From: Micromonospora andamanensis
GTDB taxonomy: Bacteria > Actinomycetota > Actinomycetes > Mycobacteriales > Micromonosporaceae
Assembly: GCF_016863495.1 (NCBI RefSeq)
Contig: NZ_BOOZ01000035.1
Location: 1-64,000 of the forward strand
Direction: 5' to 3'
Length of the DNA stretch: 64,000 nucleotides
Part shown: in pieces, positions 12,031 to 28,888 of the stretch
Layout: every line of letters starts with the position of its first letter
Position numbering within the stretch: position 1 is the stretch's first letter
Translations under genes and position numbers: made by a program
The notes under the pieces: generated by a model
What the model was told of the DNA's origin: nothing
Databases searched by the model: none
Seen by the model: the letters and a program-made list of their open reading frames with translations, nothing else

Positions 12031-15000
12031 GAACGCTCCCGCAGGCGCTGCTCGAAGACCGCGTACGCCTGGCGCATGTCCGCCTCCCGGTCCAGGGTGA
12101 CGAACGGCAGCTCATAGGTGTAGGTGTTGCCGGCCTGGTTGGTGGCGGTGCGCTCCTCGGCGGTGATCCGGTCGTCGCCCTTCCGGCGCCAGACCGTGAG
12201 CACCGAGTTGGGCACCAGCCGACCGTTCGCGTCGTAGAAGTAGATGTTGCGGTCGTAGCCGCGCAGCACCGCGAACTGTGTCCGGTAGATCGAACACAAC
12301 TCGTCGGCGGTCAGCCCGAGCGCCAGCGCGACAAGCGCGTCGATCTCCACAAGCGCCTGCCGCCGATCCGCGGCGATCCGCAACGGCGTCTCCGGCGTCC
12401 ACTCCGCCCCGACGTCGCCGATAGGAGACCTTCGGTGACGGGTCCCGATCCCAACCGCCCAGGCGTCTTCGGCGAACTCATCCTGATAGCACTCCCGCCA
12501 TACGTCGGCGTAGACCTCCACCACAGCATTGAGCCGCAACGTCCGCAATATCAGCTCCGAGCTCAGGGGTGAGTCGGCAAATGCTAAGCGTCGAAATGTC
12601 GATGACGAAATAGTCGACTTAGGAGCAACGCGAACGGAATAGTCGTGTGTGAGCGAGGATGCGAACCCCAGCAACTGAACCAGCTTATTGAGCCCATCCC
12701 CCGGCAGTCCGGCCGACGAGACGCCATGAATGTGTGCGCACCCAGGGGGAATCAACGCTGGGATGAATGTCCGCTCTCCCTGATTCGCGGCCATGTTTCG
12801 CCAGGCGATGCGGTAGTGGTCGCGGGCGGGGTCGGGGTGGTCCTCGTCGCCCCAGTCGGTGTAGGCACAGTCGTAGTCATAGCGGTCACCGCGGGGTTGG
12901 TAGGCAATGGCCGGGATCGCGTCGGCCGCCAACGCCTCGAAGTCCGTACCCGACCAGTCCTGGTTGTTGCGCAGCGACTCGTTCGGTTCCTTGTAGAGCG
13001 GCGTCGACACGAACAGGTGCGGTCCTTGAAGGATCACGTCGTCCCAGGAGTCCGGCACGCTCCACTCCGACTCGAAATACCCCTTGGTCCGGTCGTTCTT
13101 CTCATGCCAACCCGCCGAGAAGCGCAGGCCGAGGTCGCCGATTCGGCCGGCGCGGGACAGCTTTTCCAGTACCCCCGCGCTGGACTGGTTCACCGCGTAC
13201 ACCATCCGGGTCTGCCGGATGGGCACGTCGTTGCTCTCCATGGTGGCGTGCCAGGCGCGCAGCGTCTCCTCGGTGACCGTGGTGATCCGCGAGCGGTGCG
13301 GGCGCACGTCCCAGCGACCCTCGTCGTCCTTGAGCCCGGGTTCCGGGCCGGAGCCGTCGTGCACCAGGGAGCGGATCGCCGTGTCGGGGTGGTAGAGCCA
13401 ACTCGCCTGGATGAAGGCCGGCAGGCTCTGCCGTGACCCGTGCACCGTGATGCCGTAGTGCTTGTGGTCCTCAATCTCGAAGAGCAGCAACTCGTTGACA
13501 AAGTGCCAGTGGCGGCGGAGGCGTAGGTACAGCTCGGAGCGGAGGATGCCTGCTTTCTCGTCGGTGAAGTGTGAGTTCAGGTGGATCATGCCGATGGTGC
13601 CGCGGGCCGACCCGTGCCGCCACATCACCTCCATGAAGCAGCGGTACAAATCTGGCTGAAGGCCCTGCAGATGTGGATACTGGCCGACCGAGCCGACGAA
13701 CGCCGCGATCGAGAGCATTTCCGCCGTGCCGTCGACGACCAGCTCGGTCATGCCCGGCAATGACAGGGTCGCCTCCCGCCTGGCAGCGACCTGTGCCTGG
13801 GTCGGCTTCAGCGCCAACTGCCACCACGGATCGCCCTCGGCCAGCAGGGCGTCCACGTCCGAGCGGGGTCGCACCCAGGGCGGGTTGCCGACCTGGAGGT
13901 CGAAGCCGCCCCGGGCGAACACGGTGGCGAAGTCCAGTTGCCAGTGGAAAAAGCCCTGCCGCCCGGCGATACGCTCGCACACCACCAGCCACGGGTGCTC
14001 CCGCAACACCGTCCCGATGGGCTTCGCGCCAGCAAAGCCGATCTCCACCTGTTCGGCCTCGTTGAGTTCGCTCCAGCTCATCCCAGCGGTCAGGGTCGGC
14101 CCGGACGCCCTGCGTTTGCGCAACTCCGGGTTGCGACCCAGCAACGCCTGCAACCCGGCCACCCACTGCGCGACGCTCGGCGGGGCGATCACCTCGCCAT
14201 CCACGGTGGCGGGCTCGTCGGTGAGCGGCCAGAACCACAGCGCCGTCCAGGCGTCCATCGCCCGGCGTAACCGCCGGTAGGCGCCGTCCTCGTCGTTGAG
14301 CGCCTTCTCGATCTCCTCGCGCTGCACCGCCCCACCGGCGGGCAGCTCACCCGCCTCCCACACCGGGATGCGTCGGCGGATCTGCTGCTCGGCGAGGTCC
14401 AGGCGGCGGTAGGCGATCTGCCACAGTGACTCGACCCGGTGCGCCAGTTCGGCGTACGCGTCGATGGTTTGTCTGGTGGGTTTGGTCTTGGTGCTTCCCC
14501 GCCAGGTCTTGAGCTGCTTCGCAGCGTCGGGGGCGAGCGCGGCGGCCTCCTTGGCGTCGGCGGCCGAACCCCAGCCGTCGGCGGGCAGCAGGAAGTGGTG
14601 GATACCGTCGGTGCCGACCCGGCCGGCGGCCATGTCGTCGACAAGCGAGGTCAGCGGCATCTCCGTCGGTACCGCGCCCAGCCACGACTTGTCGGCGACC
14701 TGGCTGCGGCGGTAGACGGCCCGGCGGGCACCGATCAAAGAGTTTCCGCGCTTGAGGTGCAGGCCGAACCAGGGCGCCGGCAGGCCCGGGACCATCGTGT
14801 CCAGCCACAGGGTGATCTCGGCGAGCTCGACGGCGGTGGCGTTCAGGTCGACGCCGTAGACGTTGTGCAGGGCGAGGTACGCCTTCACCTCTTGCAGGCG
14901 TTTCGGGTAGTCGTCCGGGTCGATGGTCTTGCCCTCGTCGGCCAGCTCCTCCTTGCGGCGCTTGAGATACTGCTCGGCGAGCTGCCGCACCGCCTCGATG

Positions 15001-16748
15001 GCGAACGCTCCCGAGCCGAGCGCCGGTTCGCAGATCGTCATGCCGAGGATGTCGGCGGCCGGTGTGCGTTCGCCGTTCTGGTCGAGCAGTTCCTCCAGGG
15101 CCTGCCCGACTGTGAACTTCGTCAGCACCTCGCGGGTGTAGTAGGACGCCGACTGCTGGCGTTCCCGACCGGCCAGCCGGAACACGAACGAGCCCTGGTG
15201 GTGCAGCACCGGTTGCAGCTCGCCGGTCGTCTGGTGGGCCTGCTTGACGAAGTCTCCGGCCGCGATGCCACCCGCCCGGTTCACCGGCACCACCCAGGAG
15301 CCCTTGCTGCCGTCACCACCCTTCGCGACCTCGTACAGGTCGGTGTCGGCGAAGAAACCGGTGTACGACATCAGCCCCTCGTAGACCGCGCCGAGCTGGT
15401 TGATGCCCAGCTCCGCGTACGAGATGAAGCCTCGGTCCCGGCCGCGCCGCTCCTTGCTCAGCAGCAGATGGGTGAGGACCTCCTGAAGTGCGGCGTTGCC
15501 GAGCCCTACCGCGTCGATGTGCGCGGTGGCGCTCGGCCGGAACAGGTCGGCGCGCAGCGGGTTGAACGTGAGCCCCGGCGCGGACAGCGATTCCTCGTCG
15601 TCCGGCTCGATGCTCTGGTGGCCCTTGTCGACGAGCCGGAACAGCACGCCCAGCGACTCGTAGAGGTGGGTGCCGGTTCGGGCGCGGGGGGTGGCCAGTT
15701 CGACCTGGACGAGTTCCCGCAGCCGGTCCAGGCTGTAACCCCGGTCGTACTCGGGGGCGCCGACCGGCAGGACGCCCAGCTCGGGCGACGCCTCCGCGTA
15801 GAGCAGGAAGAGGATGCGGTAGAGGAAGCGCAGCGCCTGCTTGGCCAGCGGCTGCGCCTCCGCCGCGGGCAGCGGGTCGAGGCCCTGGTCGCGGCGGCGG
15901 GCCACCACCTCGTTGGCGATGATCTCGATGGAGAGGCGTACGCCCTCGCGGAGGTCCTTGGAGACGCCGACGGTGTGTTTGATCGACTCGTCGAGGACGC
16001 CGCTCCACCACAGGTTGCCGTCCGCGTCCGGAGCGATCGAGGCGGCAGCCAGGCAGGTCAGGGCGCGGTCGATCTCACCGCCGCGTCTGGTGTCGTTGCG
16101 TTCGCAGATCAGCTGCAGGTCGACGGCGAGATAACGGCCTTCGGCCCAGCGTTCCCGCTCGGCCAGCACCGCCCAGCGACCCGCCAGGATGAGGATCAGA
16201 TCCGGGGCGTCGTCCTCGCCGAACAGGGCGGAGGCAAGCCGCGCGGCCGAGGTGAGTTCGTCGCTGTCGTCGTGCAGGCGCACCGGCTCGGCCAGCGTCC
16301 GGCCGTCCTTGGCCAGCACATCCTCGACCGTGGCTACCGGCTGGGCGAACACGACGACCAGTGGTGCCCGTTCAGTGATGCCGGGTGCCGAGACGCGCAG
16401 GAACGGCCCGTCGCCGCCGACGACGAGACCGTGCTCGCGTAATTCCAGGATGCCGACGAGGCGCTGCTGGATCGACGCGACCGCGTCGGCGATGGTCTGC
16501 GGATCGGTGGCACCGAGGTCTGCCTCCACATCGGTCAGCTCGGCGAGCTTGGCAAGGTCGGCTTCCAGCTCCTGCCGGGCCTCGATGAACCGGCTGCGCG
16601 GGGTGGGCCGGCGCTCGTCGGCCTCTGCGTCCCATTCCTTGCGACGCTCCAGCACCCGGGCGCGGAACGACTCCTTTGTCGCGTCGGTGGTGAAGTAGTG
16701 CTCCGAGATCCAGCCCTCACCGACCAGGATCGCGTCCGACACGCTCAT
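12027..16748 (-). CDS. drmMI: Large N6-adenine DNA methyltransferase, Eco57I-like (DISARM DrmMI-like)
   Basis: A 1573-aa protein. The SAM-binding motif I is CEPALGSGAFAIEAV near residue 563, and the catalytic motif IV GNPPWVRP near 953 marks an N6-adenine (gamma-class) methyltransferase. The two motifs are almost 400 residues apart, with helical inserts, as in Eco57I-type enzymes. The start at 16748 (MSVSDAILVGEGW) forms an ATGA overlap with the stop of the SNF2 gene; the frame stays open for 198 more codons upstream, but that stretch is an Arg/Ala-rich shadow of the SNF2 gene. In DISARM the methylase marks host DNA so that the system restricts unmodified phage DNA. Its position between the SNF2 helicase and the helicase-DUF1998 gene matches class 1 DISARM order. 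Target sequence unknown. Confidence 0.85.
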   Translation of the reverse strand: MSVSDAILVGEGWISEHYFTTDATKESFRARVLERRKEWDAEADERRPTPRSRFIEARQELEADLAKLAELTDVEADLGATDPQTIADAVASIQQRLVGILELREHGLVVGGDGPFLRVSAPGITERAPLVVVFAQPVATVEDVLAKDGRTLAEPVRLHDDSDELTSAARLASALFGEDDAPDLILILAGRWAVLAERERWAEGRYLAVDLQLICERNDTRRGGEIDRALTCLAAASIAPDADGNLWWSGVLDESIKHTVGVSKDLREGVRLSIEIIANEVVARRRDQGLDPLPAAEAQPLAKQALRFLYRILFLLYAEASPELGVLPVGAPEYDRGYSLDRLRELVQVELATPRARTGTHLYESLGVLFRLVDKGHQSIEPDDEESLSAPGLTFNPLRADLFRPSATAHIDAVGLGNAALQEVLTHLLLSKERRGRDRGFISYAELGINQLGAVYEGLMSYTGFFADTDLYEVAKGGDGSKGSWVVPVNRAGGIAAGDFVKQAHQTTGELQPVLHHQGSFVFRLAGRERQQSASYYTREVLTKFTVGQALEELLDQNGERTPAADILGMTICEPALGSGAFAIEAVRQLAEQYLKRRKEELADEGKTIDPDDYPKRLQEVKAYLALHNVYGVDLNATAVELAEITLWLDTMVPGLPAPWFGLHLKRGNSLIGARRAVYRRSQVADKSWLGAVPTEMPLTSLVDDMAAGRVGTDGIHHFLLPADGWGSAADAKEAAALAPDAAKQLKTWRGSTKTKPTRQTIDAYAELAHRVESLWQIAYRRLDLAEQQIRRRIPVWEAGELPAGGAVQREEIEKALNDEDGAYRRLRRAMDAWTALWFWPLTDEPATVDGEVIAPPSVAQWVAGLQALLGRNPELRKRRASGPTLTAGMSWSELNEAEQVEIGFAGAKPIGTVLREHPWLVVCERIAGRQGFFHWQLDFATVFARGGFDLQVGNPPWVRPRSDVDALLAEGDPWWQLALKPTQAQVAARREATLSLPGMTELVVDGTAEMLSIAAFVGSVGQYPHLQGLQPDLYRCFMEVMWRHGSARGTIGMIHLNSHFTDEKAGILRSELYLRLRRHWHFVNELLLFEIEDHKHYGITVHGSRQSLPAFIQASWLYHPDTAIRSLVHDGSGPEPGLKDDEGRWDVRPHRSRITTVTEETLRAWHATMESNDVPIRQTRMVYAVNQSSAGVLEKLSRAGRIGDLGLRFSAGWHEKNDRTKGYFESEWSVPDSWDDVILQGPHLFVSTPLYKEPNESLRNNQDWSGTDFEALAADAIPAIAYQPRGDRYDYDCAYTDWGDEDHPDPARDHYRIAWRNMAANQGERTFIPALIPPGCAHIHGVSSAGLPGDGLNKLVQLLGFASSLTHDYSVRVAPKSTISSSTFRRLAFADSPLSSELILRTLRLNAVVEVYADVWRECYQDEFAEDAWAVGIGTRHRRSPIGDVGAEWTPETPLRIAADRRQALVEIDALVALALGLTADELCSIYRTQFAVLRGYDRNIYFYDANGRLVPNSVLTVWRRKGDDRITAEERTATNQAGNTYTYELPFVTLDREADMRQAYAVFEQRLRERS

Positions 16749-19615
16749 GCGGTGGCTCCGATCTCCGGCACGACGACCAGCAGTGGGCGGACCAGTTGCC
16801 GATCCGGGTTCATGTCGGCCACCAGCCGCTGCTCCTGCGCGATGCTGACCCGGCGCTGCTTCAGATCGCGGCGCTGGATGAGCGCGTCCGCCTCGTCCTG
16901 CCATTGGGCCAGCCGGTGCGACCACTGCTCGACCCGGTGCGCGACGTCTTTCTCGGCCGCCGCGAACAGGTCGCGCATCTGCGCGCGGGCGTGCTGAACG
17001 GCTGGGGCGATGAACCGGTCCAAGGCCTCGGCGTCCGGCACCGGACCGGGGTTGGCCCGCGCGGTGTCGAAGCCCAGCGCAGCCAGTGCCGCGGCGGCCG
17101 ACGGGTGCGGGGTCACCGGGGCGAACGACAGGGTGTCGGGCATCGGGAACTCGACGGTCAACCACGCCGCCGAGACGACCTGCCCGCGCCGGTTGGTGAG
17201 CGTGCCCAGCAGCAGCACGGTCGGGTCGTGGACACCACCGCGGACCGCGAAGACCTGGTTGCGGCCGAGCCCGGCCAGAGCGCGGTCCGAGGCCCAGTCC
17301 AGCACCGGATGCAGTGGACCCAGATAGTGCGCGTCCGGCCAACTGGAGCCGGTCTCATCGCACAGCGCCTGCTCCATACGGTCCTTGCCCCGGGCGAGGG
17401 TGGTGGCCAGGACGAGCCGGTCGGTGACCCGCCGGTCGGCGAGATAGCTCTGCGGCAGGACCTCAAGGCGTTGCACCAGGTCCGGCGGCGGGGTCAGCTC
17501 GGCGGTGCCGAAGGCGGCGTCGCGGCGCCAGGCGACGCCGTTGTTGCTCGGCGGGCCGGTCGGGTCGACGAAGGCGGCGTGCAACGCCTCTTCGAGGTAG
17601 GAGACCTCGTCGGGGTAGAGCCCGGAGCCCGGGGTTACGGTCGTCTCGGGCAGCGGCGCAGTTTCCGCGTCGTCGTCGGCATCGACGATGCCGAAGAACA
17701 TCGCCGACAGGTCATCACCGGCCAGCACCTCTTCCGGCGTACGCACCACGTCGTCCAGGTCGCGCTGCCCGGACAGGACGGCACGGATGGTGTCCTCCTC
17801 GCCCTTGACGTCGTACTGGCCCATCAGCGAGGCGACGTCGCCGAGCGCACGGTGCGCCTCGTTCTCCTTGTCGACGAGTTTCGCCAGGATGCGGATGTCG
17901 CCAGCGAACCGGCCACTGGCCGGGTCCAGCAGCAGGGCGATGATCCGGGGCGGGTGTCGCTGGCGGTAGCGGTCGATGCGGCCGTTGCGTTGCTCGATCC
18001 GGATGAGGCTCCATGGGATGTCGTAGTGGATCAGGTGGTGGCACTGGGCGTGCAGGTTGACTCCTTCGGAGGCGACGTCGCCGGTGACCAGGACGCGAAT
18101 CGCGGCGTGTTCCTGCTTGAAGGCGTCGACGATCTGCTGCTGCTCGTCGTCGGGCAGACCACCGTGCATGATGGCGACGGCTCCGGCGGGCAGGCCGAGG
18201 TCGGCCGGCAGGTTCTTGTGCAGCCAGGTGAGGGTGGCTACCCGTTCGGCGAACACCACCGCCCGCGTCGGTGAGCCTGCCGCGACGCCGATCTCCTGGA
18301 GGCGGCGGACCAGCTCGGCGTACTTGGCCGAGCCCTGCGCCAGCGTTGCCGCGTTGAGGTCGGCCATCCGATCCAGCGCCGCGCGTTCCCTGTTCGCGGC
18401 GGCGTCGTGCCCGAGGCGACCCAGCCGCTGCCGGATGGTTTCCGCCAGCGCAGCCGGCGACGACAGGAATGCCTTGGCCAGCGTCCACGGGAACAGCGAC
18501 GCGTTCTGCCCGGAGTAGGGGGTGCGTCGGTCCGGCGGCCACAACCAGACGTCCTCAAGTTCCCGGGCGACCGCATTCTCCGCCCGGCTCGCGGCGACGA
18601 GCACGTTCTCCGGCTCCTGTCGTTCCGCCCAGTCGGCGCCGACGGCGCTAGCCACCTCGTCGCTGTGCCGGTGGCGGCGGATCACCAGCCGTTCGATCTC
18701 GGCGGCCACCAGGTCGCCACCGGGTGGGATCGCGGACGGGTCGAGCAGCCGGACCAACTCGGCGAAGGACTCCTTGCGCCCGTTGTGCGGGGTCGCCGAC
18801 GCCAGGATCAGGGTTTCGGTATTGCGGGCCAGCGTGCGGGCCAGCCGGTTGTTCTGCGTGGCCGCGTTGGCGAGGTTGTGCGACTCGTCAATGACCACCG
18901 CGTCCCAACGCTGCTTCTTCAGGCTGGCCGCGTACCGCTCCGACTTGAGGGTGTCTATCGAGATGATCGCCCGCCGGAAATACGTGAACGGGTTACGGTT
19001 CGCCGGGAGCTTCTGGCGGACCCGTTGGATGCCGGCCGAGTCGAGGCGGACGAACGGCAGCGCGAAGCGCGACCACAATTCCTGCTGCGTCTGTTCGAGC
19101 ACGTGGCGCGGGGTCACGATGAGGATCCGCTCGCCACGGCCCCGGCGTACCAACTCCGACAGGATCATGCCGATTTCCAGGGTCTTGCCGAGCCCGACAG
19201 CGTCGGCCAGGAGGATCCGGGGACGCAGGTTGTCCGGGTCGAGCGCCTTGCGCACGGCGGTCTGTTGGTATCTCAGGGGTGTCGCGAGGGCCTGGGTGGC
19301 AACGGTGAGCGAGCGATCGGCGAGCGGAACGGCGGTCTTTCGGTAGGTGGATTCCAGCCAGAGGCGGGCCTTGCGGTAGCGCGGGCTGTCGTCCGCCACG
19401 ACGCTCGCGGCCGCCGGGTCGAGCGGTGCGATGTGGTCGAGGGAGGCGTAGAAGCTGGCGGTCACGTCACGAACCAGTTCACCCAGTCCGCGGACGTGCA
19501 CGAGGAGCCCGTCCGCGGTTTCTTCCGCGGTCTGCACCAGCCATTCCTCGTCGCGGATGACCACCACCGACCCTGGCGCCACGTCGAGTGCCGACTCAGA
19601 ACGGACATCGTTCAC
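16745..19615 (-). CDS. drmD: SNF2-family helicase, DISARM DrmD-like
   Basis: A 956-aa SNF2/Rad54-type ATPase. Walker A is DAVGLGKT at about 138-145, Walker B is IDESHN at about 242-247, and ATPHNGRKESF follows. The C-terminal helicase half (VTGDVASEGVNLHAQ, IEQRNGRIDRYRQ) lies near residues 507-545, so both RecA lobes are complete. A GTG start at 19615 is preferred because a run of purines (ggggaggggag) sits 6 nt upstream; an in-frame ATG at 19714 lacks such a site. It directly precedes the methyltransferase (ATGA overlap), the drmD-drmMI order of class 1 DISARM. A 146-bp gap separates it from the upstream unknown gene, so an internal promoter is possible there. Likely role: DNA translocation or remodelling in phage restriction. 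Confidence 0.8.
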   Translation of the reverse strand: MNDVRSESALDVAPGSVVVIRDEEWLVQTAEETADGLLVHVRGLGELVRDVTASFYASLDHIAPLDPAAASVVADDSPRYRKARLWLESTYRKTAVPLADRSLTVATQALATPLRYQQTAVRKALDPDNLRPRILLADAVGLGKTLEIGMILSELVRRGRGERILIVTPRHVLEQTQQELWSRFALPFVRLDSAGIQRVRQKLPANRNPFTYFRRAIISIDTLKSERYAASLKKQRWDAVVIDESHNLANAATQNNRLARTLARNTETLILASATPHNGRKESFAELVRLLDPSAIPPGGDLVAAEIERLVIRRHRHSDEVASAVGADWAERQEPENVLVAASRAENAVARELEDVWLWPPDRRTPYSGQNASLFPWTLAKAFLSSPAALAETIRQRLGRLGHDAAANRERAALDRMADLNAATLAQGSAKYAELVRRLQEIGVAAGSPTRAVVFAERVATLTWLHKNLPADLGLPAGAVAIMHGGLPDDEQQQIVDAFKQEHAAIRVLVTGDVASEGVNLHAQCHHLIHYDIPWSLIRIEQRNGRIDRYRQRHPPRIIALLLDPASGRFAGDIRILAKLVDKENEAHRALGDVASLMGQYDVKGEEDTIRAVLSGQRDLDDVVRTPEEVLAGDDLSAMFFGIVDADDDAETAPLPETTVTPGSGLYPDEVSYLEEALHAAFVDPTGPPSNNGVAWRRDAAFGTAELTPPPDLVQRLEVLPQSYLADRRVTDRLVLATTLARGKDRMEQALCDETGSSWPDAHYLGPLHPVLDWASDRALAGLGRNQVFAVRGGVHDPTVLLLGTLTNRRGQVVSAAWLTVEFPMPDTLSFAPVTPHPSAAAALAALGFDTARANPGPVPDAEALDRFIAPAVQHARAQMRDLFAAAEKDVAHRVEQWSHRLAQWQDEADALIQRRDLKQRRVSIAQEQRLVADMNPDRQLVRPLLVVVPEIGATA

Positions 19616-19761
19616 TGTCGTCTCCCCTCCCCCATCGAGCCGCTGCGGTCCGAAGATCCTATGTAGAAACGCGGTGGCCGGAGACCCGTCATCCGTTCCT
19701 GCTAGCCGGATCAAAAGTGCTGGCGGTCGTACGAGCGGCGGATTTGCCGCAGGTGTATCGG

Positions 19762-21446: not shown

Positions 21447-21506
21447 ACTTGCGGTCACCGTTGCTGAAAACCCCTCAGCTCGCCGAGATCGATCATCGTC
21501 CTCGCG

Positions 21507-21518
21507 GGTGACGTCACC
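21507..21518. promoter_or_regulatory. 12-bp perfect palindrome in the divergent promoter region
   Basis: ggtgacgtcacc is a perfect 12-bp dyad between the two divergent defence modules. If the DUF4365 gene starts at 21446 or 21398, it lies in non-coding DNA and could be an operator controlling both modules. If that gene starts at 21554, it would lie inside its 5' end. Confidence 0.35.
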
Positions 21519-21613
21519 ACGCCGGGGTTTTGTCTTGCCGTTGTCGCCGGTCATTTGGGATGCTCGCTGCCGTAGGCATCGACACCTGGCGACGACAGGG
21601 ACGTGATGGCGCG

Positions 21614-23047
21614 GTGACGCGGGCGGCATCGGGGGAACCGCCGATCCACTTCTTCGCGCATCAGGCACGGGCAGGAGCGACAGGTGCCCGCGAGGACTTC
21701 GAACAGATGATCGCGCTCCTGGTCGAGGCGGTACGCGGTGACGCCCGGCTCGTGTTCGCCAACGGTGGCGACTGGGGCATCGACGCGTTGGTCGGCGACC
21801 TCAACGGTCAGATCACGATCTGGCAGGCGAAGTACTTCCCGCACGGGGTCACACGGAACCATCGCCGGCAGATCGAGGATTCGTTCGCTTCGGCGGTACG
21901 CAACGCGCGTCAGCATGGTTACCAGATTCAGGAGTGGGTGCTCTGCGTACCGTCGAGCTTCGATCCGCAGATGGCCCAGTGGTGGGACAGCTGGGGCCCG
22001 ACACGGACGCGGCTCACCGGAGTGCGGCTGTTCCTGTGGGACGAGACGGCCTTGCGGAGTCAGCTCATGCAGCCCGCCGCACGATATGTTCGGCGCGCCT
22101 ATTACCACCCCTATCAGGACAGTGGCGATACAGACGAGCCGGAGCGCTCGCAGCCTGTCATGATCAGGACCGAGAGGCCCCGGCAGTACCGGGACCACGC
22201 TCAGGACTCCTGGCGTGGTGGTGACGAGCGCAGGATCGGCACGCACAGTTACCTACTGCACGGCGACGCCGTCGAACAGATCAGCAACGACCACTCGTGG
22301 AGTTGGCGGGAGGCGACCGCCGACCGGGTCCAGCACGACCCGCTCCGAGTCCGGATCCGCCAACTCCGCCTCATCCGGGACACTCCGGTGGCCCAGCGGC
22401 GCCGTGAGGAGATGCGCGCGCAGGGCCGCCTCCTACGCAAGCTGAACGGTGCAGCAGGGCTACCGTCGTTCGACAACCTGACCGAGGATGCTGCCTCCAC
22501 CACGCTGGTCACGGTGCTGCCGTCCGGGCCCACCTGGCGGCAGGCATTCGGCCCCACAGGTGCGCCGCTGGCCCGGTTCGCCGCTGCCGGCGTGCTCGGT
22601 GCCGCCGCCGATGTCTGTGCCGCCTTGACGGTGCTGCACGGGGAAGGGGCAAGTCACCGGGCGCTCGGTCCCGACAGCATCGTGCTCTGCGGGCGTACGA
22701 GGCGCGCGACGCTGGTTGACGGCGGTCTGGCCGCTCTCACGCCCCAGCCAGGCGAGGGCGTTCCCGGCTACCGCGCACCGGAGCAGCACCGGGGCAACGG
22801 ATCCGCCGCTCCAGTCGACGTCTACCAGCTGGCGGCGCTGGTCTATCACACGATGACCGGCCATCCGCCATCGCCGCACGCAACGCCGCCGATCCGGACC
22901 ACTCTGCCCGAGCTGCCCGATCACATCGACGATCTGCTATTGCGCTGCCTAGATCCGGACCCGTCCCGCCGTTCCACCGAGACACGTGCCCTCGCGGGTG
23001 CCTTCCGCGAGGGACGTCGGCTGCTGTCCCAGGGAGGCACGCCCTGA
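21614..23047 (+). CDS. Mrr-like nuclease domain fused to a degenerate Ser/Thr kinase
   Basis: A 477-aa protein from a GTG at 21614 (VTRAASGEPPIHFF), with aggga about 11 nt upstream; an ATG at 21560 is an alternative. Residues about 10-110 look like a PD-(D/E)XK restriction fold: EDFEQM, then GDWGIDALVGDLNGQ and IWQAKYF, giving D...QxK. Residues about 210-470 have protein-kinase layout but with lost catalysis: the VAIK lysine strand reads RVRIRQL, the HRD loop is HRALGPDSIVL (Asp to Ala) near 347, and DFG is DGG near 368, while YRAPEQ and DVYQLAALVYHTMTG are conserved. This predicts a pseudokinase, perhaps a sensor or scaffold controlling the nuclease. Its stop overlaps the probable start of the helicase gene (CTGA), so it is the first gene of a rightward operon. 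Confidence 0.75.
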   Translation: MTRAASGEPPIHFFAHQARAGATGAREDFEQMIALLVEAVRGDARLVFANGGDWGIDALVGDLNGQITIWQAKYFPHGVTRNHRRQIEDSFASAVRNARQHGYQIQEWVLCVPSSFDPQMAQWWDSWGPTRTRLTGVRLFLWDETALRSQLMQPAARYVRRAYYHPYQDSGDTDEPERSQPVMIRTERPRQYRDHAQDSWRGGDERRIGTHSYLLHGDAVEQISNDHSWSWREATADRVQHDPLRVRIRQLRLIRDTPVAQRRREEMRAQGRLLRKLNGAAGLPSFDNLTEDAASTTLVTVLPSGPTWRQAFGPTGAPLARFAAAGVLGAAADVCAALTVLHGEGASHRALGPDSIVLCGRTRRATLVDGGLAALTPQPGEGVPGYRAPEQHRGNGSAAPVDVYQLAALVYHTMTGHPPSPHATPPIRTTLPELPDHIDDLLLRCLDPDPSRRSTETRALAGAFREGRRLLSQGGTP

Positions 23048-25968
23048 CCGTCGCGTCCCTGATCCTGCCTGGCCCGGTCGCGGTCGTACCATCCGGCAAG
23101 GCCATCGATCAACTGGCCCAGGGTGGCTTGCGGGACCCCTCGGTGCTGATCAACGAGTTCGGCAGGTTGGCGTCGTCGAACGCGCTGCCGGCCCGGGTCG
23201 AGCCGGACCGCTCCCGACTGGTCGTCTACGGCGAGCGCTGGGCAGCCTGGCTCTACCCCACCAACCACGGTGACGCGTACCAGCTCGGACACGTCGCACC
23301 GCTCTCCTTCAAGGACCAGGAACGCCTTCTCAAGGCGGCGCTGGTCCTCAGCGGTACGAGGGGCTGGTGGGCCTACCACCACGTCCGGGACGTGCCGCAG
23401 CGGTCGTCGTCACACTGGCCGCTGCTCTGCCGGGCCTGGGCTGATCTCGCCGTCCCCCGTCCGGGCGTGACACCACCGATGCCAGCACATCATGTCGAGT
23501 ATCTCGACCTGCTCACCGAGGTCATTGAGGCAACCCGGGATATCGAGATCGCGCGGCAACGCCGGGAGCCGGCCCTGCCGTACCGGAAGCTGGCCAGCAC
23601 CCGTGAGGAGCGGTACTCCGCCCGCGGCGTCTACGCCTTCCACCTGCTCCGTGACGCCACCGTAGGCCGAGGTGCGCTGGTCTTCGTCACCGATCAACCC
23701 GACTTGCGCGGCCGGGTGCTGCGGATCAAGGACCGGGAGATCACCGTAAGATTCGACGACACCGTCGACTACGCCCGCATCCCCCAGCAAGGTGCGTTGC
23801 AGGTGCTGCCCAGCGACCGGGTCTACCGCGCGCAGCTCGACGCGGTGGAGACTCTCCGGGAACAACGTGGCACCCAGCCCCACCTGCTCACCCAGTTGGT
23901 CGACCAGCGTCTCGCGCCGTACCGGCCGGACTCCGATGCGCAGCCACGCGAGACGCTCGACCCGGCGCAGCTGCATGCCTTCCGCACTGCCCTGACCGTG
24001 CCCGATCTGCTGTTGGTGCTTGGACCGCCCGGCACCGGGAAGACCCGCACCATCACCGAAATCGCCGCCGGGTGCGCCGAACGTGGGCAGCGGGTATTGG
24101 TCACCTCCCACACCAACCGCGCCGTCGACAACGTGCTCGAACGACTACCGCCGGATGTCCGGGCGGTCCGGGTCGGTAACGAGGACACAATGACCGCGCA
24201 AGCACGCGGGTTCATGGTGGAGACGCAGGTCGAAGCATTACGGCAGGAGATTCTCGCGGCAACCGCAGGTACGGCTTCCCGCCTGGCTACCTTCACCGGC
24301 ACCGATGACCAGGCTGGGCGGTGGCTCGGGTACCTGGCCGCGCGGCTAGCGGAGGCCCAGGGCGCGAACCGGGACGTCCAGTTCCGCACCGCCGAGCTGG
24401 CAGCCGCGGTCGAGCGGGCGATCGCACCCTTCGCCGCACAGCTCGCTGCCGCCGACCAGCGAGCACGGGAGTCACGTGAGAGTGTGGTACCGCTCGCCGA
24501 AAGGCACCGCCACCATGAACGGCAGGCCGAGACGGCACGGCGGCGAGCCGCCTCAGGAGTGCCGGCCTTCTTCTTCCGCTGGCTCGCCGACCGCCGAGAA
24601 CGGCATCTCGCCGCGATCTCCGAGCAGCTCAACGCCGCGCGGACGGCAATGCGACTGGCCGAGGAGTCGTATGCTGCGGTTCGTGCCCGAGCCGACGCGC
24701 TGGTCGCCGCCGACCCGGGAGTTCGGGCAATCACCAGTGCCCGCGACGGTGCTTCCAAGATGTATGAGAAGGCGCTCGGCGAGGCCACTCGGGCAGTGGA
24801 AGCAGCGCGCGAGGTGCTGCGCCCAGCGGTCGCAGTGCCCGGTGGGGTGCCTGACGATCTGGCCGGCTGGACGCGGTTATACGAGGAGCTGATGTCGGCG
24901 GCAGCCCTGGCCCGCAATCGGGCCGGGCTACTCGCGCAGTGGCGTGAGCAGGTGGCCGTCGCCGAGCAGGACCTGCATCGAGAGCTGGTCCGGTACGCGG
25001 ATGTGGTGGCGGCCACCTGCATTGGCACCGCCACCACCACCCTGCTGGCCGAGTTGGAATTCGATGTGGCGATCGTCGACGAGGCCGGGCAGATCTCGAC
25101 GCCGAACCTGTTGGTGCCGCTGGTACGGGCCCGCCGAGCGGTGCTGGTCGGCGACCACAATCAACTGCCACCCTTCCTCGACGACGAGGTACGCAGCTGG
25201 GCCGACAGCATCGCCTCCGATAGGCCCCCTGAGGTCGCGACACTGGTCGCTGACGTGCTGCGGCGCAGCGCCTTCGAACGGCTGTATCCCCGGTTGGCAG
25301 ACACCAACCGGGTCATGTTGCGGGTGCAGCGACGCATGCCGGCGGAGCTGGCCCAGTTCGTGTCGAACACCTTCTACCGCGGACTATTGGAGACCGATCA
25401 TCCCGGCGGTCCGCCCGACCCTGTGTTCAGCGCGCCACTGGCGATGATCGACACGTCGGACCAGCCAGCGACGCGGCGGAGGGAGCAGCCCGACCGCTCG
25501 GTGGATGGGCTGGGACGGCCCGGCTACGTCAACGAGCTGGAGGCCCGGCTGATCGTCCAGCTGTTGGGCCGGAACGCCACACGATACGCCGACTGGGCGG
25601 TCATCGTCCCGTATCGGGCACAGGCGGAGCTGATCACTCAGCTACTCAGAAGGGAGCTTGGTGACGCCGGGGTGGCCGACAACGTGGGCACCGTCGACTC
25701 GTTCCAAGGCGGTGAACGGGATCTGATCGTCTACGGGTTCACCCGCAGCAACCACGGAGGCCAGATCGGCTTTCTCACCGAACTCCGACGCCTCAACGTG
25801 GCAATCACCCGACCCCGGCGTCAACTCGTCCTGGTGGGCGATACGACTACCTTGCGTGCCGCACGGGACCCGGGATTCGCCGCGTTGATCCAATCGTTGA
25901 TCGCCCATCTCGACGCGGTGGGTGACCGCCGACCCTCCCGGGAGATCGAGGGGGTGCTCAATGACTGA
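23044..25968 (+). CDS. SF1 helicase, UPF1/DNA2-like (AAA_11/AAA_12), probable CTG start
   Basis: A SF1B helicase of about 974 aa. Walker A is LGPPGTGKTRT, followed by TSHTNRAVDNVLERL; Walker B is DVAIVDEAGQ, then VGDHNQLPPF; the C-terminal lobe has NVGTVDSFQGGERD and LNVAITRPRRQ. A long helical, probably coiled-coil insert lies between the two Walker motifs. The N-terminal 250 residues are an unassigned domain. The first conventional start in frame is a TTG at 23128 with no good ribosome site, whereas a CTG at 23044 has aggaggg-like agggagg 6 nt upstream and overlaps the preceding stop (CTGA). That makes CTG the better start. Such helicases act on RNA or DNA; here the partner is the nuclease-pseudokinase encoded just upstream. 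Confidence 0.8.
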   Translation: MTVASLILPGPVAVVPSGKAIDQLAQGGLRDPSVLINEFGRLASSNALPARVEPDRSRLVVYGERWAAWLYPTNHGDAYQLGHVAPLSFKDQERLLKAALVLSGTRGWWAYHHVRDVPQRSSSHWPLLCRAWADLAVPRPGVTPPMPAHHVEYLDLLTEVIEATRDIEIARQRREPALPYRKLASTREERYSARGVYAFHLLRDATVGRGALVFVTDQPDLRGRVLRIKDREITVRFDDTVDYARIPQQGALQVLPSDRVYRAQLDAVETLREQRGTQPHLLTQLVDQRLAPYRPDSDAQPRETLDPAQLHAFRTALTVPDLLLVLGPPGTGKTRTITEIAAGCAERGQRVLVTSHTNRAVDNVLERLPPDVRAVRVGNEDTMTAQARGFMVETQVEALRQEILAATAGTASRLATFTGTDDQAGRWLGYLAARLAEAQGANRDVQFRTAELAAAVERAIAPFAAQLAAADQRARESRESVVPLAERHRHHERQAETARRRAASGVPAFFFRWLADRRERHLAAISEQLNAARTAMRLAEESYAAVRARADALVAADPGVRAITSARDGASKMYEKALGEATRAVEAAREVLRPAVAVPGGVPDDLAGWTRLYEELMSAAALARNRAGLLAQWREQVAVAEQDLHRELVRYADVVAATCIGTATTTLLAELEFDVAIVDEAGQISTPNLLVPLVRARRAVLVGDHNQLPPFLDDEVRSWADSIASDRPPEVATLVADVLRRSAFERLYPRLADTNRVMLRVQRRMPAELAQFVSNTFYRGLLETDHPGGPPDPVFSAPLAMIDTSDQPATRRREQPDRSVDGLGRPGYVNELEARLIVQLLGRNATRYADWAVIVPYRAQAELITQLLRRELGDAGVADNVGTVDSFQGGERDLIVYGFTRSNHGGQIGFLTELRRLNVAITRPRRQLVLVGDTTTLRAARDPGFAALIQSLIAHLDAVGDRRPSREIEGVLND

Positions 25969-26020
25969 CGGAGCAGCATCCACGCTGACGATCAGCACGG
26001 TAAGCGGGACGTTCTCGTGA
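25961..26020 (+). CDS. 19-codon micro-ORF bridging two defence genes (candidate)
   Basis: ATG at 25961 to TGA at 26018-26020 would encode MTDGAASTLTISTVSGTFS. The start lies inside the last codons of the helicase, with gaggggg 6 nt upstream, and the stop overlaps the GTG start of the next gene as GTGA. It may be a small protein, a coupling peptide that carries ribosomes across the 48-nt gap, or the remnant of a frameshifted N-terminus of the downstream gene. Only its position and ribosome site support it. Confidence 0.4.
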   Translation: MTDGAASTLTISTVSGTFS

Positions 26021-27180
26021 CCCGGGTCATTTACCCCGCCCAACGAGCCATCGAGCACGCAGTCACCGTGCCAGGGGTGCGCCCGGCGCGGCTCTTCCCC
26101 GTGCTCTGGCCGCTCTGGCAGGTCGAGACAGCTGCACAGGTATACGACGAGCAGGCATACGAGGTGATCGATCGCTTCCTGGTGCGGGGCATCCTGGAAG
26201 CCGGGCTGCACCGATCGGCGGACCTGGCAGCCTTCTACGGTCTACCCACCTCACTCGTGGAACGCTGCCTGGCATTCCTCACTCTCATCGGCCACGTCCG
26301 CAACACCGAGGGGCTGGTAACGCTTACCCCGCTCGGGGAAAGCTCCGCCCGGGCCGACGTCCGCTACGTTCCGAAGGAAAGCCGCCAGCAGCTTCTCGTC
26401 GAACGCTTCACCGCCCGCCCGCTCCCCCGCAGCCACTACCAAGGTTCGCTGAGCCTGCTGCCCACACCCCACGTGCCCGCTGAACGGGTCAGCGACGGAT
26501 CACGTTTCGCTCCGCTCTTCTCGTCCTCGACCTTCCGGCCTGAGATCGTCACGCAGCTCGGAGAGCGACCGGACCGATTCGACTTCAACCTGCCGAAGCA
26601 ACTGCGGAATCTGCGCGTGCTCGGGCACCAGGACGCCTACCTGCCGGCCTACCTCATCGAGGACGCCGACGGTCGGCTGCTGGCCTACAGCGGGGTGCAC
26701 GGCGAACGAGACACCTTCCTGGAGTCACTGTGTGACCGGGTCCCGCTAATCAGGACGCTGATCGCAGCCGAGCCGTCGCAGGACCCGCGAGAGATCTGGA
26801 CCAATTGGCTCGCGGACGGCAAACGAAAGGGCACCCTACGGCAGCTGCCCAGCGGTGTCTGGCGCGCAACCCTCGTTGCGGACAGCTTCGGTGGCACACC
26901 AAAGATGCCACTCAGTCGAATCGGGTCGTACCAGCTACGCAAGCGGCACTTCGTGCAGATCTGGACCGACGACGCAAAGCTACGACGGCAGGCAGCACTG
27001 CGACGGGCTCTGGCCATGACGCAACTCCGCGATGTCCGTACCAGAGCCGACCTCACCGGCCGGCTGAGGACGGTGGCCGAACAACTCGAGGTGACCACAC
27101 CCACCCTCGACGAGCTGCACCGGTACGCAAAGAAGGAGCAGTTGCACCGGTACCTCGTCCACTTCGATGCACTGGAGTAG
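26017..27180 (+). CDS. Winged-helix protein of unknown function, third gene of the nuclease-pseudokinase module
   Basis: A 387-aa soluble protein from a GTG at 26017. Residues about 20-110 (ARLFPVLWPLWQVETAAQVYDEQAYEVIDRFL in outline, then LAAFYGLPTSLVERCLAFLTLIGHV and LVTLTPLGESSA) have the helix pattern and wing of a winged-helix DNA-binding domain. A short block VPKESRQQLLVERFTARPL follows, and the rest is a mixed alpha/beta region ending in a basic helical tail (LRRQAALRRALAMTQLRD, YAKKEQLHRYLVHF). I do not recognise the family. It may be the DNA-binding or sensing subunit of the module. It is co-transcribed with the helicase through the micro-ORF at 25961-26020 and is followed by the recombinase gene. 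Confidence 0.7.
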   Translation: MTRVIYPAQRAIEHAVTVPGVRPARLFPVLWPLWQVETAAQVYDEQAYEVIDRFLVRGILEAGLHRSADLAAFYGLPTSLVERCLAFLTLIGHVRNTEGLVTLTPLGESSARADVRYVPKESRQQLLVERFTARPLPRSHYQGSLSLLPTPHVPAERVSDGSRFAPLFSSSTFRPEIVTQLGERPDRFDFNLPKQLRNLRVLGHQDAYLPAYLIEDADGRLLAYSGVHGERDTFLESLCDRVPLIRTLIAAEPSQDPREIWTNWLADGKRKGTLRQLPSGVWRATLVADSFGGTPKMPLSRIGSYQLRKRHFVQIWTDDAKLRRQAALRRALAMTQLRDVRTRADLTGRLRTVAEQLEVTTPTLDELHRYAKKEQLHRYLVHFDALE

Positions 27181-27375
27181 CTGCGGCTCTGGTTGGCGCA
27201 TGTGCGACGAAGATGCCGCAGTCCCCCGCTCCCGTGTGGCGAAGCCTGCCAGGCTCCGGTTCACGCCGGTTTGGCTCCGACAGGCCGATCAATGCCGCTG
27301 CCACCCAACCGGCCGGAAGTTGGGGCCTGGTGGAGACGGACCTCCTGTGCGGCTCCACCACGAGGAATCTTCGGT

Positions 27376-28785
27376 ATGAAGGGCGACGTGTCAGATGACC
27401 AAGGTGTAAAGGATCCCCTGGCCCAATGGCTGAACGAGCAGTCGGAGGCGCGTACAAAGCCACGGGTCCGTCGGCGGGGCAATCTGCGCTTCGCGTTCTA
27501 CGGTCGGATGTCGACGGTTGAGCACCAGGACCGAGCGACGTCCCGAAACTGGCAGCTGGATTGCGCGACCGACCTCGTGTCCGGTCACGGGGCGATCGTC
27601 ACCGAGTACTTTGACGTCGGCTGCTCCCGTCGCCGCAGCTGGCGGCACCGCCCGCAATCGACAGCTCTGTTGGCCAGGCTCGGCGACCCTCTTCGCGGGT
27701 TCGACGCGATCGTGGTCGGCGAGTACGAGAGAGCCTTCTCCGGAAACCAACTGCTGAACCTGATGCCGCTGCTCGAACAGCACGATGTGCAACTGTGGCT
27801 ACCCGAAACGGATGGGCCCGTCGACTGTCGCAAACCAACCCACCAGGCGCTGATCATGTTGCTGGGTGTCCAGTCCAAGCGCGAGGTGCAGCGTTCCCGG
27901 CACCGAGTCATCACCGCGATGCGCACTCAGGCGCGGGAGCAGGGCCGCTACCTCGGCGGCAGGCCACCCTACGGATACCAACTTGTCGACGCGGGTCCCC
28001 ACCCCAATGCCGCACACGCTCGATGGGGTCGTCGACTTCAGCGACTCGAACCCGACCCGGCCACGGCCGCACACGTGCGGCGAATGTTCGCCCAACGACT
28101 CGCCGGTCACAGCCTCGCCAGCATCGCTCGCGCCTTGAACGACGACGCCGTCGCCTGCCCCTCAACCGTCGACCCCGGCCGCAACCACCACCGCACCAAC
28201 GATAGATGGACCCTCCGAACAGTCTCGGCGATCCTCGCCAACCCCCGCTACACCGGCCGGCAGGTATGGAACCGGCAACGCACCGACATCGACACCGCCG
28301 ACGGCACCCGCGACGCACACGGAACCGTCCGATGGAACAACACCAAGGACTGGGTGATCTCCAAACAACAAGCCCACACCGCCCTTGTCACCGAGCAGGA
28401 GTTCATCGCCACCCAGGCCATCCGCTCCCGCCGAAGCGCCCACGACGGCACCACCCGCAGCTACCTACTCACCGGCCTGCTGCGATGCGGATCATGCGGC
28501 CGGAGGATGGACGCCCACTGGGTCAACCAACGCCCCGGCTACCGATGCCGCCACGGGCACACCAGCACCCAACACCCCGCCAACCAACGCCGCAAGATCC
28601 TCTACCTGCGGGAGGACCACGTCATCGCCAGACTGGCCGGCCATCCCAGCATCGCCAGAGACACTCACAGCCCGCACACGCTGGCCGCCTTCCTACGCGT
28701 GAATAAGATCCACGTCGTGTGCGATCAGACGCACTGCACACCAATCACGGCCAGATTCGTGCAGGTAGACCCAGCACAATCATGA
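27376..28785 (+). CDS. Large serine recombinase (complete)
   Basis: A 469-aa protein. The N-terminal resolvase domain contains FYGRMSTVEHQDRATS, with the catalytic serine in the GRMST context, and EYERAFSG; then GRYLGGRPPYGY, a 'recombinase' domain with NPRYTGRQVWNRQRTD, and a zinc ribbon LRCGSCGRRMD...YRCRHGH. The C-terminal coiled-coil tail is shorter than in many phage integrases. ATG at 27376 has gagga 9 nt upstream; GTG at 27388 is an alternative. The frame stays open upstream but that stretch is not family-like. The gene ends 20 bp from the 3' end of tRNA-Leu, so it marks the right border of the accessory island and is the likely integrase for it or for a nested element. Confidence 0.9.
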   Translation: MKGDVSDDQGVKDPLAQWLNEQSEARTKPRVRRRGNLRFAFYGRMSTVEHQDRATSRNWQLDCATDLVSGHGAIVTEYFDVGCSRRRSWRHRPQSTALLARLGDPLRGFDAIVVGEYERAFSGNQLLNLMPLLEQHDVQLWLPETDGPVDCRKPTHQALIMLLGVQSKREVQRSRHRVITAMRTQAREQGRYLGGRPPYGYQLVDAGPHPNAAHARWGRRLQRLEPDPATAAHVRRMFAQRLAGHSLASIARALNDDAVACPSTVDPGRNHHRTNDRWTLRTVSAILANPRYTGRQVWNRQRTDIDTADGTRDAHGTVRWNNTKDWVISKQQAHTALVTEQEFIATQAIRSRRSAHDGTTRSYLLTGLLRCGSCGRRMDAHWVNQRPGYRCRHGHTSTQHPANQRRKILYLREDHVIARLAGHPSIARDTHSPHTLAAFLRVNKIHVVCDQTHCTPITARFVQVDPAQS

Positions 28786-28804
28786 TCGGCATGTGGTAAT
28801 GATG

Positions 28805-28888
28805 TGTCCGAGGGGGGACTTGAACCCCCACGCCCTATACGGGCACTAGCACCTCAAGCTAGCGCGTCTGCCATTCCGCCACCCGGAC
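28805..28888 (-). tRNA. tRNA-Leu (anticodon GAG)
   Basis: Read on the minus strand, the acceptor stem gtccggg (28888-28882) pairs with ctcggac (28812-28806). The anticodon stem ctagc/gctag encloses ttgaggt, giving anticodon GAG, which reads CUC and CUU. There is a long variable arm typical of class II tRNA and a T arm ggggg-ttcaagt-ccccc. The 3' CCA is not encoded. It is the boundary between the accessory island and the chromosome. Confidence 0.93.

What the first reader, a model, noticed from the sequence alone, without database searches (positions are those of the whole stretch)
21614..27180. Candidate new defence module: nuclease-pseudokinase fusion, UPF1-like helicase and winged-helix protein
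Three tightly coupled genes inside a defence island encode an Mrr-like nuclease domain fused to a catalytically dead kinase, an SF1 UPF1/DNA2-type helicase, and an unknown winged-helix protein. The described Mokosh system also combines a COG1112-type helicase with a kinase domain, but there the nuclease is PLD-type and the kinase is fused to the helicase. I know no named system with this composition. A pseudokinase gating a nuclease would be a new sensing idea.
Basis: partly seen in the sequence, partly recalled or inferred. Interest (0 to 1): 0.88.

Follow-up and report, generated by a model that had tools for sequence, protein, structure and literature searches.

The report
Helicase-pseudokinase module with swappable effectors
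Three neighbouring genes form a movable bacterial cassette in which a dead kinase seems to connect a virus-sensing helicase to one of many interchangeable weapons, here a DNA-cutting enzyme; relatives carry the same core with quite different weapons.

Summary
The three genes are real and tightly linked (21614-27180). P1 is a PD-(D/E)xK (Mrr/LmuA-type) nuclease fused to a kinase fold, P2 a UPF1/IGHMBP2-like helicase, P3 a winged-helix protein. The kinase is dead across the family: 0 of 69 aligned rows keep the beta3 lysine, 4 of 69 the HRD aspartate. A helicase-only search kept 70 loci, all in actinomycete genera; 65 of 70 hold all three genes in the same order. Against one relative, homology runs from 21534 to the P3 stop, so the trio is a unit of its own. 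Pseudokinase, helicase and P3 are co-inherited, whereas the N-terminus of P1 is exchanged: Mrr, Cap4 or HNH nuclease, nucleoside phosphorylase, TIR, SEFIR, DUF4145, a hydrophobic segment, or a RHIM-like motif. In one RHIM-type locus a SEFIR protein with a matching C-terminal motif lies about 0.9 kb from P3. P2 and the N-terminal half of P3 are related to Mokosh, but the kinase is split off and dead, and no PLD nuclease was found. I read it as a sensor - pseudokinase adaptor - exchangeable effector system. Defence function is inferred; the sampled relatives are not in obvious defence islands.

The parts
21614..23047 (+). P1: nuclease - pseudokinase fusion, 477 aa (GTG start)
21656..22108 (+). 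P1 N-terminal effector: PD-(D/E)xK (Mrr/LmuA-type) nuclease domain, about residues 15-165; catalytic set D57, Q71, K73
   Evidence: PADLOC LmuA E 9e-42; invariant in 16 of 16 rows; order of helices and strands in the model fits a PD-(D/E)xK core (my reading)
22223..23044 (+). P1 C-terminal pseudokinase (constant adaptor): Arg at the beta3 Lys position, HRA in place of HRD, DGG in place of DFG
23044..25968 (+). P2: UPF1/IGHMBP2-like SF1 helicase; listed ORF 23128-25968 (TTG, 946 aa); conserved N-terminus begins at CTG 23044, overlapping the P1 stop (974 codons)
24022..24042 (+). P2 Walker A (GPPGTGK); motif II DEAG at 25078-25089
   Evidence: alignment A3: G299, P300, P301, G302, G304, K305, D651, E652, A653 invariant in 14 rows
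26017..27180 (+). P3: winged-helix protein, 387 aa; N-terminal part homologous to the N-terminal part of MkoB; no PLD match
26146..26361 (+). P3 winged helix (residues 44-115), MarR-like fold
21534..27180 (+). Extent of the trio cassette, from homology with the fetched stretch of L030, which otherwise matches the window only in two short recombinase pieces
27193..28785 (+). Large serine recombinase next to the cassette (context, mobility)
28804..28888 (-). tRNA-Leu (gag) beyond the recombinase (context)
3500..19714 (-). Context: ARMADA type II-like operon: UvrD helicase 3500-5653, YprA/DruE-like helicase 5653-12030, large type IIG-like methyltransferase 12027-17342, SNF2 helicase 16745-19714
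   Evidence: compared by me with ArmA-ArmD as described in one passage of PMC12458937
19762..21668 (-). Context: PADLOC candidate pair PDC-M02B (19762-20886) and PDC-M02A/DUF4365 (20883-21668), divergent from the trio

Best explanation
The trio is one sensor - adaptor - effector immune module. Sensor: P2 (an SF1 helicase with intact ATPase motifs) together with the winged-helix protein P3 engages foreign or aberrant nucleic acid. Adaptor: the catalytically dead kinase of P1 does not phosphorylate; it passes the change of state of P2/P3 on by conformational change or by clustering. Effector: whatever is attached to the N-terminus of the pseudokinase is switched on, in this window a PD-(D/E)xK nuclease that would cut DNA and stop the infection, probably at the cost of the cell. 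Shown here: composition, order, cassette boundary, family-wide loss of kinase catalytic residues, co-inheritance of the three constant parts, exchange of the effector, and the relation of P2/P3 to Mokosh. Inferred: what is sensed, physical complex formation, activation by clustering, and the antiphage function itself.
For: Order and linkage: 65 of 70 loci from a helicase-only query. Cassette boundary 21534-27180 against L030. Co-inheritance: Mantel r 0.906-0.939, p 0.001, between P1 kinase, helicase parts and P3 over 65 loci. Effector exchange: N-terminal clusters with Pfam matches to PNP_UDP_1, HNH, SEFIR, TIR_2, DUF4145 and Cap4 in tested members; on a quick P2 tree of 68 rows (65 labelled) ten labels need 11 changes, shuffled mean 43.8, with DUF4145 and one TIR nested in the Mrr clade. 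Effectors such as a nucleoside phosphorylase, TIR or SEFIR do not restrict DNA (general knowledge), so the conserved core must sense and signal, not cut. Dead kinase family-wide. RHIM-like N-termini in 10 P1 proteins in place of an effector; a SEFIR protein ending in a matching motif about 0.9 kb beyond P3 in Actinophytocola, while SEFIR is directly fused in 5 other P1 proteins. Sporadic in the genus: 0 of 80 other genomes at E up to 1e-60, yet P3 is 86-89% identical in two other genera.
Against: No experiment and no complex model. The nearest predicted genes of 34 sampled loci (128 proteins) match PADLOC only here and there: 74 models at E up to 1e-15, the 25 listed matched by 1 or 2 members each; the 25 Pfam families listed are mainly metabolic, transport and regulatory. 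So the sampled relatives are not in evident defence islands; no control set was run. The eight genomes with RHIM-like motifs hold 5-33 matches each at E up to 1, so the SEFIR protein near the Actinophytocola trio need not be its partner. Four rows keep HRD. Most effector classes are each confined to one lineage, so exchanges are about ten in number, not rampant; the tree is a quick one with long branches. No relative was found in viral contigs or plasmids. A second group of Mokosh-like kinases is degenerate too, so deadness alone does not set this family apart.
Confidence: 0.62

Rival explanations
1. It is a divergent Mokosh type I system in which the MkoA kinase has become a separate gene and the nuclease changed; it works as Mokosh does.
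For: P2 matches MkoA (E 4e-112 over the helicase part), P3 matches MkoB (E 1e-10 over the N-terminal third of the model), and the P1 kinase matches the MkoA kinase part weakly (E 8e-13); hhalign of P3 against the N-terminal part of MkoB 95.8%.
Against: In three Mokosh loci of the same bacterial family with canonical layout (L083-L085) the kinase is fused to the helicase and keeps HRDxKPxN; a PLDc_2 match, below the curated cut-off, was seen in the MkoB of one of the two scanned (L083 yes, L084 no). Here the kinase is separate and dead in the whole family, no PLD was matched, and the effector varies. But L077, L078, L079 and L081 have a degenerate kinase fused to the helicase, so the border is not sharp.
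Confidence: 0.2
2. A restriction-like machine: helicase and winged-helix protein bind and unwind phage DNA and the P1 nuclease cuts it directly; the pseudokinase is only a structural tether.
For: In the window the effector is a DNA nuclease with an invariant active site, next to restriction-type systems.
Against: Relatives with the same pseudokinase, helicase and P3 carry TIR, SEFIR, nucleoside phosphorylase, hydrophobic or RHIM-like N-termini, which do not restrict DNA.
Confidence: 0.12
3. A stress or cell-death programme of multicellular actinomycetes that is not aimed at phages.
For: All 70 loci kept are from actinomycete genera by their record titles; sampled neighbours are mostly not defence genes; the effector set overlaps that of the conflict/apoptosis-like systems of multicellular bacteria (passages of PMC7159879 and PMC8195603).
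Against: The window copy sits with ARMADA-like and PDC-type defence genes, part of which L029 shares; sporadic presence; exchange of effectors is typical of immune systems (general knowledge).
Confidence: 0.14

Closest known systems
Mokosh type I (MkoA/MkoB)
   Same: UPF1-like (COG1112-type) helicase, a kinase fold in the same system, and a protein with the MkoB N-terminal winged-helix part
   Different: kinase on a separate gene and catalytically dead; no PLD match; exchangeable N-terminal effectors on the kinase
Lamassu effector LmuA
   Same: the N-terminal nuclease of the window P1 matches PADLOC LmuA
   Different: no Lamassu ATPase among the window proteins scanned; here the nuclease is fused to a pseudokinase and coupled to an SF1 helicase
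Avs/STAND (NLR-like) and EAD conflict systems with exchangeable effectors and amyloid or death-like adaptors
   Same: overlapping effector repertoire and modular logic, including RHIM-like motifs that can recruit effectors in trans
   Different: no STAND NTPase in the trio; sensing core is a helicase plus a winged-helix protein; adaptor is a pseudokinase
Hachiman (HamA nuclease, HamB helicase)
   Same: nuclease paired with a sensor helicase (abstract in search listing)
   Different: different helicase superfamily, no kinase fold, no effector exchange (recalled)
RIPK/MLKL necroptosis of animals (analogy only, recalled)
   Same: RHIM motif joined to a kinase fold; pseudokinase used as a switch
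   Different: no homology claimed; bacterial, coupled to a helicase

Membership tests
Mokosh type I | UPF1-like (COG1112-type) SF1 helicase matching MkoA | tested here: met
   PADLOC PDLC03920 E 4e-112, residues 197-921
Mokosh type I | kinase domain fused to the N-terminus of the helicase | tested here: not met
   separate gene in the window and in 65 of 70 and 15 of 27 fetched loci, 69 unique; fused in L083-L085 (Pkinase Pfam match in L083 and L084)
Mokosh type I | catalytically intact kinase (as in L083-L085) | tested here: not met
   0 of 69 rows have the beta3 Lys, 4 of 69 the HRD Asp; L083-L085 keep HRDxKPxN; L077, L078, L079 and L081, also fused, are degenerate
Mokosh type I | MkoB with a PLD nuclease domain | tested here: not met
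   P3 matches only positions 8-211 of the 610-position MkoB model and has no Pfam match. In local MkoB proteins PLDc_2 is above cut-off in L077, below it in L083 and not detected in L084 or L078, so Pfam is not a sensitive test
Mokosh type I | MkoB N-terminal part | tested here: met
   PDLC03922 E 1e-10; hhalign 95.8%, E 8e-9; against this, the P3 sequence and P3 HMM alone gave no hit in five MkoB-type proteins
Lamassu | LmuA effector nuclease | tested here: met
   PDLC03851 E 9e-42 for the window P1; not run on the relatives
Lamassu | LmuB ATPase encoded with LmuA | tested here: not met
   no LmuB in the rows shown for the 11 window proteins scanned with PADLOC, 72-27177 (lists cut at 25 rows); ORFs beyond 28785 were not scanned
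Active Ser/Thr protein kinase | beta3 Lys, HRD Asp, loop Asn, DFG Asp | tested here: not met
   only the DxG Asp is kept (69 of 69)
PD-(D/E)xK (Mrr-type) nuclease | D ... (E/Q)xK active site in an alpha-beta core | tested here: met
   GIDxx...WQxKY invariant in 16 of 16 rows; order of helices and strands in the model. Pfam Mrr_cat was only a sub-threshold match in L031; no PDB relative by sequence
BASS3/RHIM-like amyloid signalling motif (10 relatives) | paired motif at the N-terminus of a receptor and the C-terminus of an effector | tested here: inconclusive
   motif in 8 of 8 genomes searched; of 8 regions fetched, two, from two genomes, hold SEFIR proteins with a C-terminal motif, one near the trio; amyloid formation not tested; the label rests on resemblance, no BASS3 profile was run

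The most novel reading that the evidence does not exclude
Bacteria use a dead kinase as a universal immune adaptor: a UPF1-like helicase plus a winged-helix protein senses infection, and the pseudokinase switches on, by assembly and not by phosphorylation, any of several fused effectors, or recruits an effector in trans through a RHIM-like amyloid motif (RHIM plus pseudokinase, as in animal necroptosis). This would be a new class of modular immunity, not a Mokosh subtype.
Probability: 0.42. Interest if true: 0.9.

Novelty: new variant of a known kind. Interest (0 to 1): 0.76.

Why it matters
If right, the pseudokinase is a plug-and-play adaptor that couples nucleic-acid sensing to unrelated killing mechanisms, a role so far given mainly to STAND ATPases and second messengers (general knowledge). 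It offers direct tests (swap effectors between relatives; kinase-dead is the natural state), links Mokosh-type helicases to the NLR-type effector world, and gives a bacterial RHIM-plus-pseudokinase arrangement to compare with necroptosis.

Tried and rejected
Plain Mokosh membership: rejected as a filing because three defining features were tested and not met, but kept as a relative. A link with phages or plasmids: P3 by tblastn in the plasmid collection gave no match, and the helicase alignment in viral contigs gave none. The P3 alignment could not be used for a collection scan, so a helicase alignment was used; that scan kept the best 80 of 217 relatives, 70 loci, so more distant ones were not seen. 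The phylum search with P3 found 9 of 396 genomes, only the own genome strongly; the rest are short winged-helix matches and I do not count them. In it only 4 candidates per genome were scored, so it is not a measure of absence. I looked for a matching short motif beside 13 loci with short or RHIM-like N-termini; a regular expression over the fetched flanks found one other protein (beside L153; NB-ARC-type by my reading), and the whole-genome search then gave the SEFIR candidates. Defence-island enrichment of relatives was looked for and not seen; no control was run. att sites: no 16-base repeat of the tRNA-Leu region elsewhere in the window. Foldseek gave no match at E below 0.001 for P3; the second look covered mainly residues 44-115, so I make no claim about the rest of its fold. 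Printed work: seven library searches aimed at the trio or its parts (listings only: titles and starts of abstracts) and passages of seven papers (in one search only the reference list matched) showed no description of this trio; three more searches were on amyloid motifs, PLuB and start codons. Subscription journals and most preprints are not held, and the original Mokosh paper was not read (recalled), so a prior description cannot be excluded. CTG as the P2 start is inferred from homology only. The kinship of DUF4145 with HEPN domains is recalled, not tested.
Full report
What is there. Three genes on the plus strand, 21614-27180, encode P1 (477 aa), P2 (946 aa as listed, probably 974 codons from a CTG at 23044 that overlaps the P1 stop) and P3 (387 aa). 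They lie between a divergent minus-strand block of defence genes and a large serine recombinase next to a tRNA-Leu. The minus-strand block reads as UvrD, YprA/DruE-like helicase, large type IIG-like methyltransferase and SNF2 helicase, which I compare with ArmA-ArmD of ARMADA type II as described in PMC12458937 (one passage read), plus the PADLOC candidate pair PDC-M02A/B.

Domains. The N-terminal part of P1 matches PADLOC LmuA at E 9e-42. In 16 of 16 rows of this type the residues G52, D53, G55, I56, D57, W70, Q71, K73 and Y74 are invariant, which is the D...QxK pattern of Mrr-type nucleases; the AlphaFold model (mean pLDDT 88.4, pTM 0.67) has an order of helices and strands in this part that fits the PD-(D/E)xK core (my reading). 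Its C-terminal part is a kinase fold: the 50 Foldseek rows shown are kinases or AMPK chains, among them PknI and PknE of M. tuberculosis with TM-score by target 0.66-0.74. P2 is closest among solved structures to SMUBP-2/IGHMBP2, DNA2 and UPF1/NAM7, with Walker A and DEA conserved in 14 of 14 rows of A3. P3 (model pLDDT 94.6) has a MarR-like winged helix at residues 44-115.

The kinase is dead, and so in the whole family. In an alignment of 69 rows (window and 68 loci; L094 with a broken frame dropped), the beta3 lysine position is R in 63, V in 3, A, T and H in one each, and K in none; the HRD aspartate is present in 4 (L040, L043-L045); asparagine is not among the eight commonest letters at the catalytic-loop position (these cover 66 of 69); the DxG aspartate is kept in 69 of 69. 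By contrast L083, L084 and L085, Mokosh loci of canonical layout in the same bacterial family, keep VA(V/L)K and HRDxKPxN. A second group of helicase-fused kinases (L077, L078, L079, L081) is degenerate too.

The trio is a unit. P3 searched in 200 genomes of the family gave 27 genomes; of 27 regions fetched around the matches, 15 hold the trio, two (L035, L041) hold P2 and P3 without a recognised P1, and ten are a different short pair or fragments. A scan of genome contigs with the helicase alignment kept the best 80 of 217 relatives, 70 distinct loci, all from actinomycete genera by their record titles; 65 of 70 have P1 kinase, P2 and P3 in order; of the other five, L134, L152 and L154 are cut by contig ends, L124 has no P1 and L155 is another helicase (causes read and, for L124). 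Eleven loci are in both sets (recognised by contig and range), so 69 unique loci plus the window. The pairwise distances of P1 kinase, helicase and P3 agree (Mantel r 0.91-0.94, p 0.001, 65 loci). The window matches the fetched stretch of L030 from 21534 to 27180, the P3 stop codon, plus two short recombinase pieces; it matches L029 from 16758 to 27443, which includes SNF2 and PDC-M02. None of 80 other genomes of the genus has the helicase at E <= 1e-60, whereas P3 of L029 and L030, from other genera, is 89% and 86% identical.

The N-terminus of P1 is an exchangeable effector slot. Of 70 P1 proteins (window included): Mrr/LmuA-type 16, nucleoside phosphorylase 14, RHIM-like motif 10, HNH 5, SEFIR 5, Cap4-type 5 (one of them, L037, in an adjoining frame), DUF4145 4, hydrophobic 4, TIR 3, a second short motif 3, unassigned 1 (L094). 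These are clusters, with L116, L131, L104 and L037 assigned by reading and. Pfam was run on a part only. Matches: phosphorylase 3 of 3 tested, HNH 2 of 2, SEFIR 2 of 2, TIR 3 of 3, DUF4145 3 of 4 (L091 none), Cap4 3 of 4 below E 0.01, of which only L040 is above the cut-off (L038 none); of Mrr-type rows, one weak sub-threshold Mrr_cat match (L031), with L036 and the window giving none. PADLOC LmuA was run on the window P1 alone. On a quick tree of 68 helicases (L038 and L123 left out as short, three rows unlabelled) ten labels need 11 changes, against 43.8 in shuffles; Mrr needs 3 changes because DUF4145 and the TIR of L104 lie inside its clade. The program warns of long branches (L135, L140). 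Most classes are thus each one clade: on this tree the effector has been replaced about ten times on a constant core, not continuously shuffled.

A relay by amyloid-like motif. Ten P1 proteins, nine of them one clade, have instead of an effector a short N-terminal motif (roughly N-x-V-x-G-x-V-x-G-x-V-x-Q-A-G-x-I-x-G-D-V-H) that resembles the RHIM-like BASS3 motif of bacterial NLRs (named in passages of PMC8086366; the match is by my reading, no BASS3 profile was run). A profile of ten such segments finds 5-33 matches at E up to 1 in each of eight genomes. I fetched eight regions. In the genome of L118 (Actinophytocola) a 201-residue SEFIR protein ends in the motif and is encoded about 0.9 kb beyond P3, convergent with the trio; a second SEFIR protein of the same build is in the genome of L143. 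Since SEFIR is fused directly in five other P1 proteins, this is what one expects if the motif replaces the covalent link. It is not proof: these genomes have many such motifs, among them NB-ARC-type proteins (my reading).

How it most likely works. P2/P3 sense nucleic acid of the invader, the pseudokinase carries the signal, and the attached effector is released or clustered. Clustering is my preference because TIR, SEFIR and RHIM-type domains are known to work by assembly (general knowledge) and because the adaptor lacks the residues to phosphorylate. In the window the output would be DNA cleavage. None of these steps has been tested.

Comparison. PADLOC gives MkoA for P2 (E 4e-112) and MkoB for P3 (E 1e-10, N-terminal third of the model), and hhalign supports the latter, though P3 and its HMM alone missed five MkoB-type proteins. 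But the fusion and the intact kinase of L083-L085 are absent here, and no PLD was matched; in local MkoB proteins PLDc_2 is above cut-off in L077, below it in L083 and not detected in L084 or L078. I call it a Mokosh-related new family, not a Mokosh. NCBIfam finds the MADS kinase MAD6 as the nearest named model for P1 (E 3e-16, far below its cut-off) and nothing for P3.

Against. The nearest predicted genes of 34 loci (128 proteins, chosen by a simple GC-frame gene finder of mine) give scattered PADLOC matches (74 models at E up to 1e-15; the 25 listed matched by 1 or 2 members each), and the 25 Pfam families listed are mainly metabolic, transport and regulatory, with GmrSD restriction enzymes in two. 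So the sampled family members are not tied to defence islands. The defence role rests on the context of the window (partly shared by L029), on the effector repertoire and on kinship with Mokosh.

Noticed in passing
window 3500-19714, minus strand: An ARMADA type II-like operon (UvrD, YprA/DruE-like, type IIG-like methyltransferase, SNF2) next to PDC-M02A/B; L029 shares the SNF2 + PDC-M02 + trio stretch.
   Followed up: partly
L046-L054 (genus g29 of the family): A recurring two-gene relic: a shortened SF1 helicase that has lost Walker A and DEAG (seen in L046, L051, L053, L054) with a protein like the N-terminal half of P3 (237-246 aa in L048, L051, L054), without P1; perhaps domesticated.
   Followed up: partly
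L041, L035 and L124: P2-P3 pairs without a recognised P1; in L041 the helicase motifs are degenerate (GTGKI, VDAGR), which looks like decay.
   Followed up: partly
L077, L078, L079, L081: A further Mokosh-like group in which a degenerate kinase is fused to the helicase; in L077 the neighbouring MkoB-type ORF is about 2000 aa with PLD and HATPase domains.
   Followed up: partly
L153:17194-18279, L168, L169, L172: An NB-ARC-type protein beside L153, another in L169, and small proteins with hydrophobic segments in L168 and L172 carry the same RHIM-like motif (my reading), suggesting a shared amyloid signalling network.
   Followed up: partly
window 23044: The conserved N-terminus of P2 starts at a CTG that overlaps the P1 stop (CTGA, also in L029); L030 has TTGA and L031 ATGA there: possible use of CTG as a start codon. 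CTGA is common at P1 stops (36 of 61), so it is no proof.
   Followed up: partly
L142:5809-8145: P1 preceded in the same ORF by a BTAD (SARP-type) regulator domain, then the second short motif.
   Followed up: no
window 72-1046: A second recombinase remnant near the left end of the window, which is the end of its contig; possibly the other end of the integrated element.
   Followed up: no
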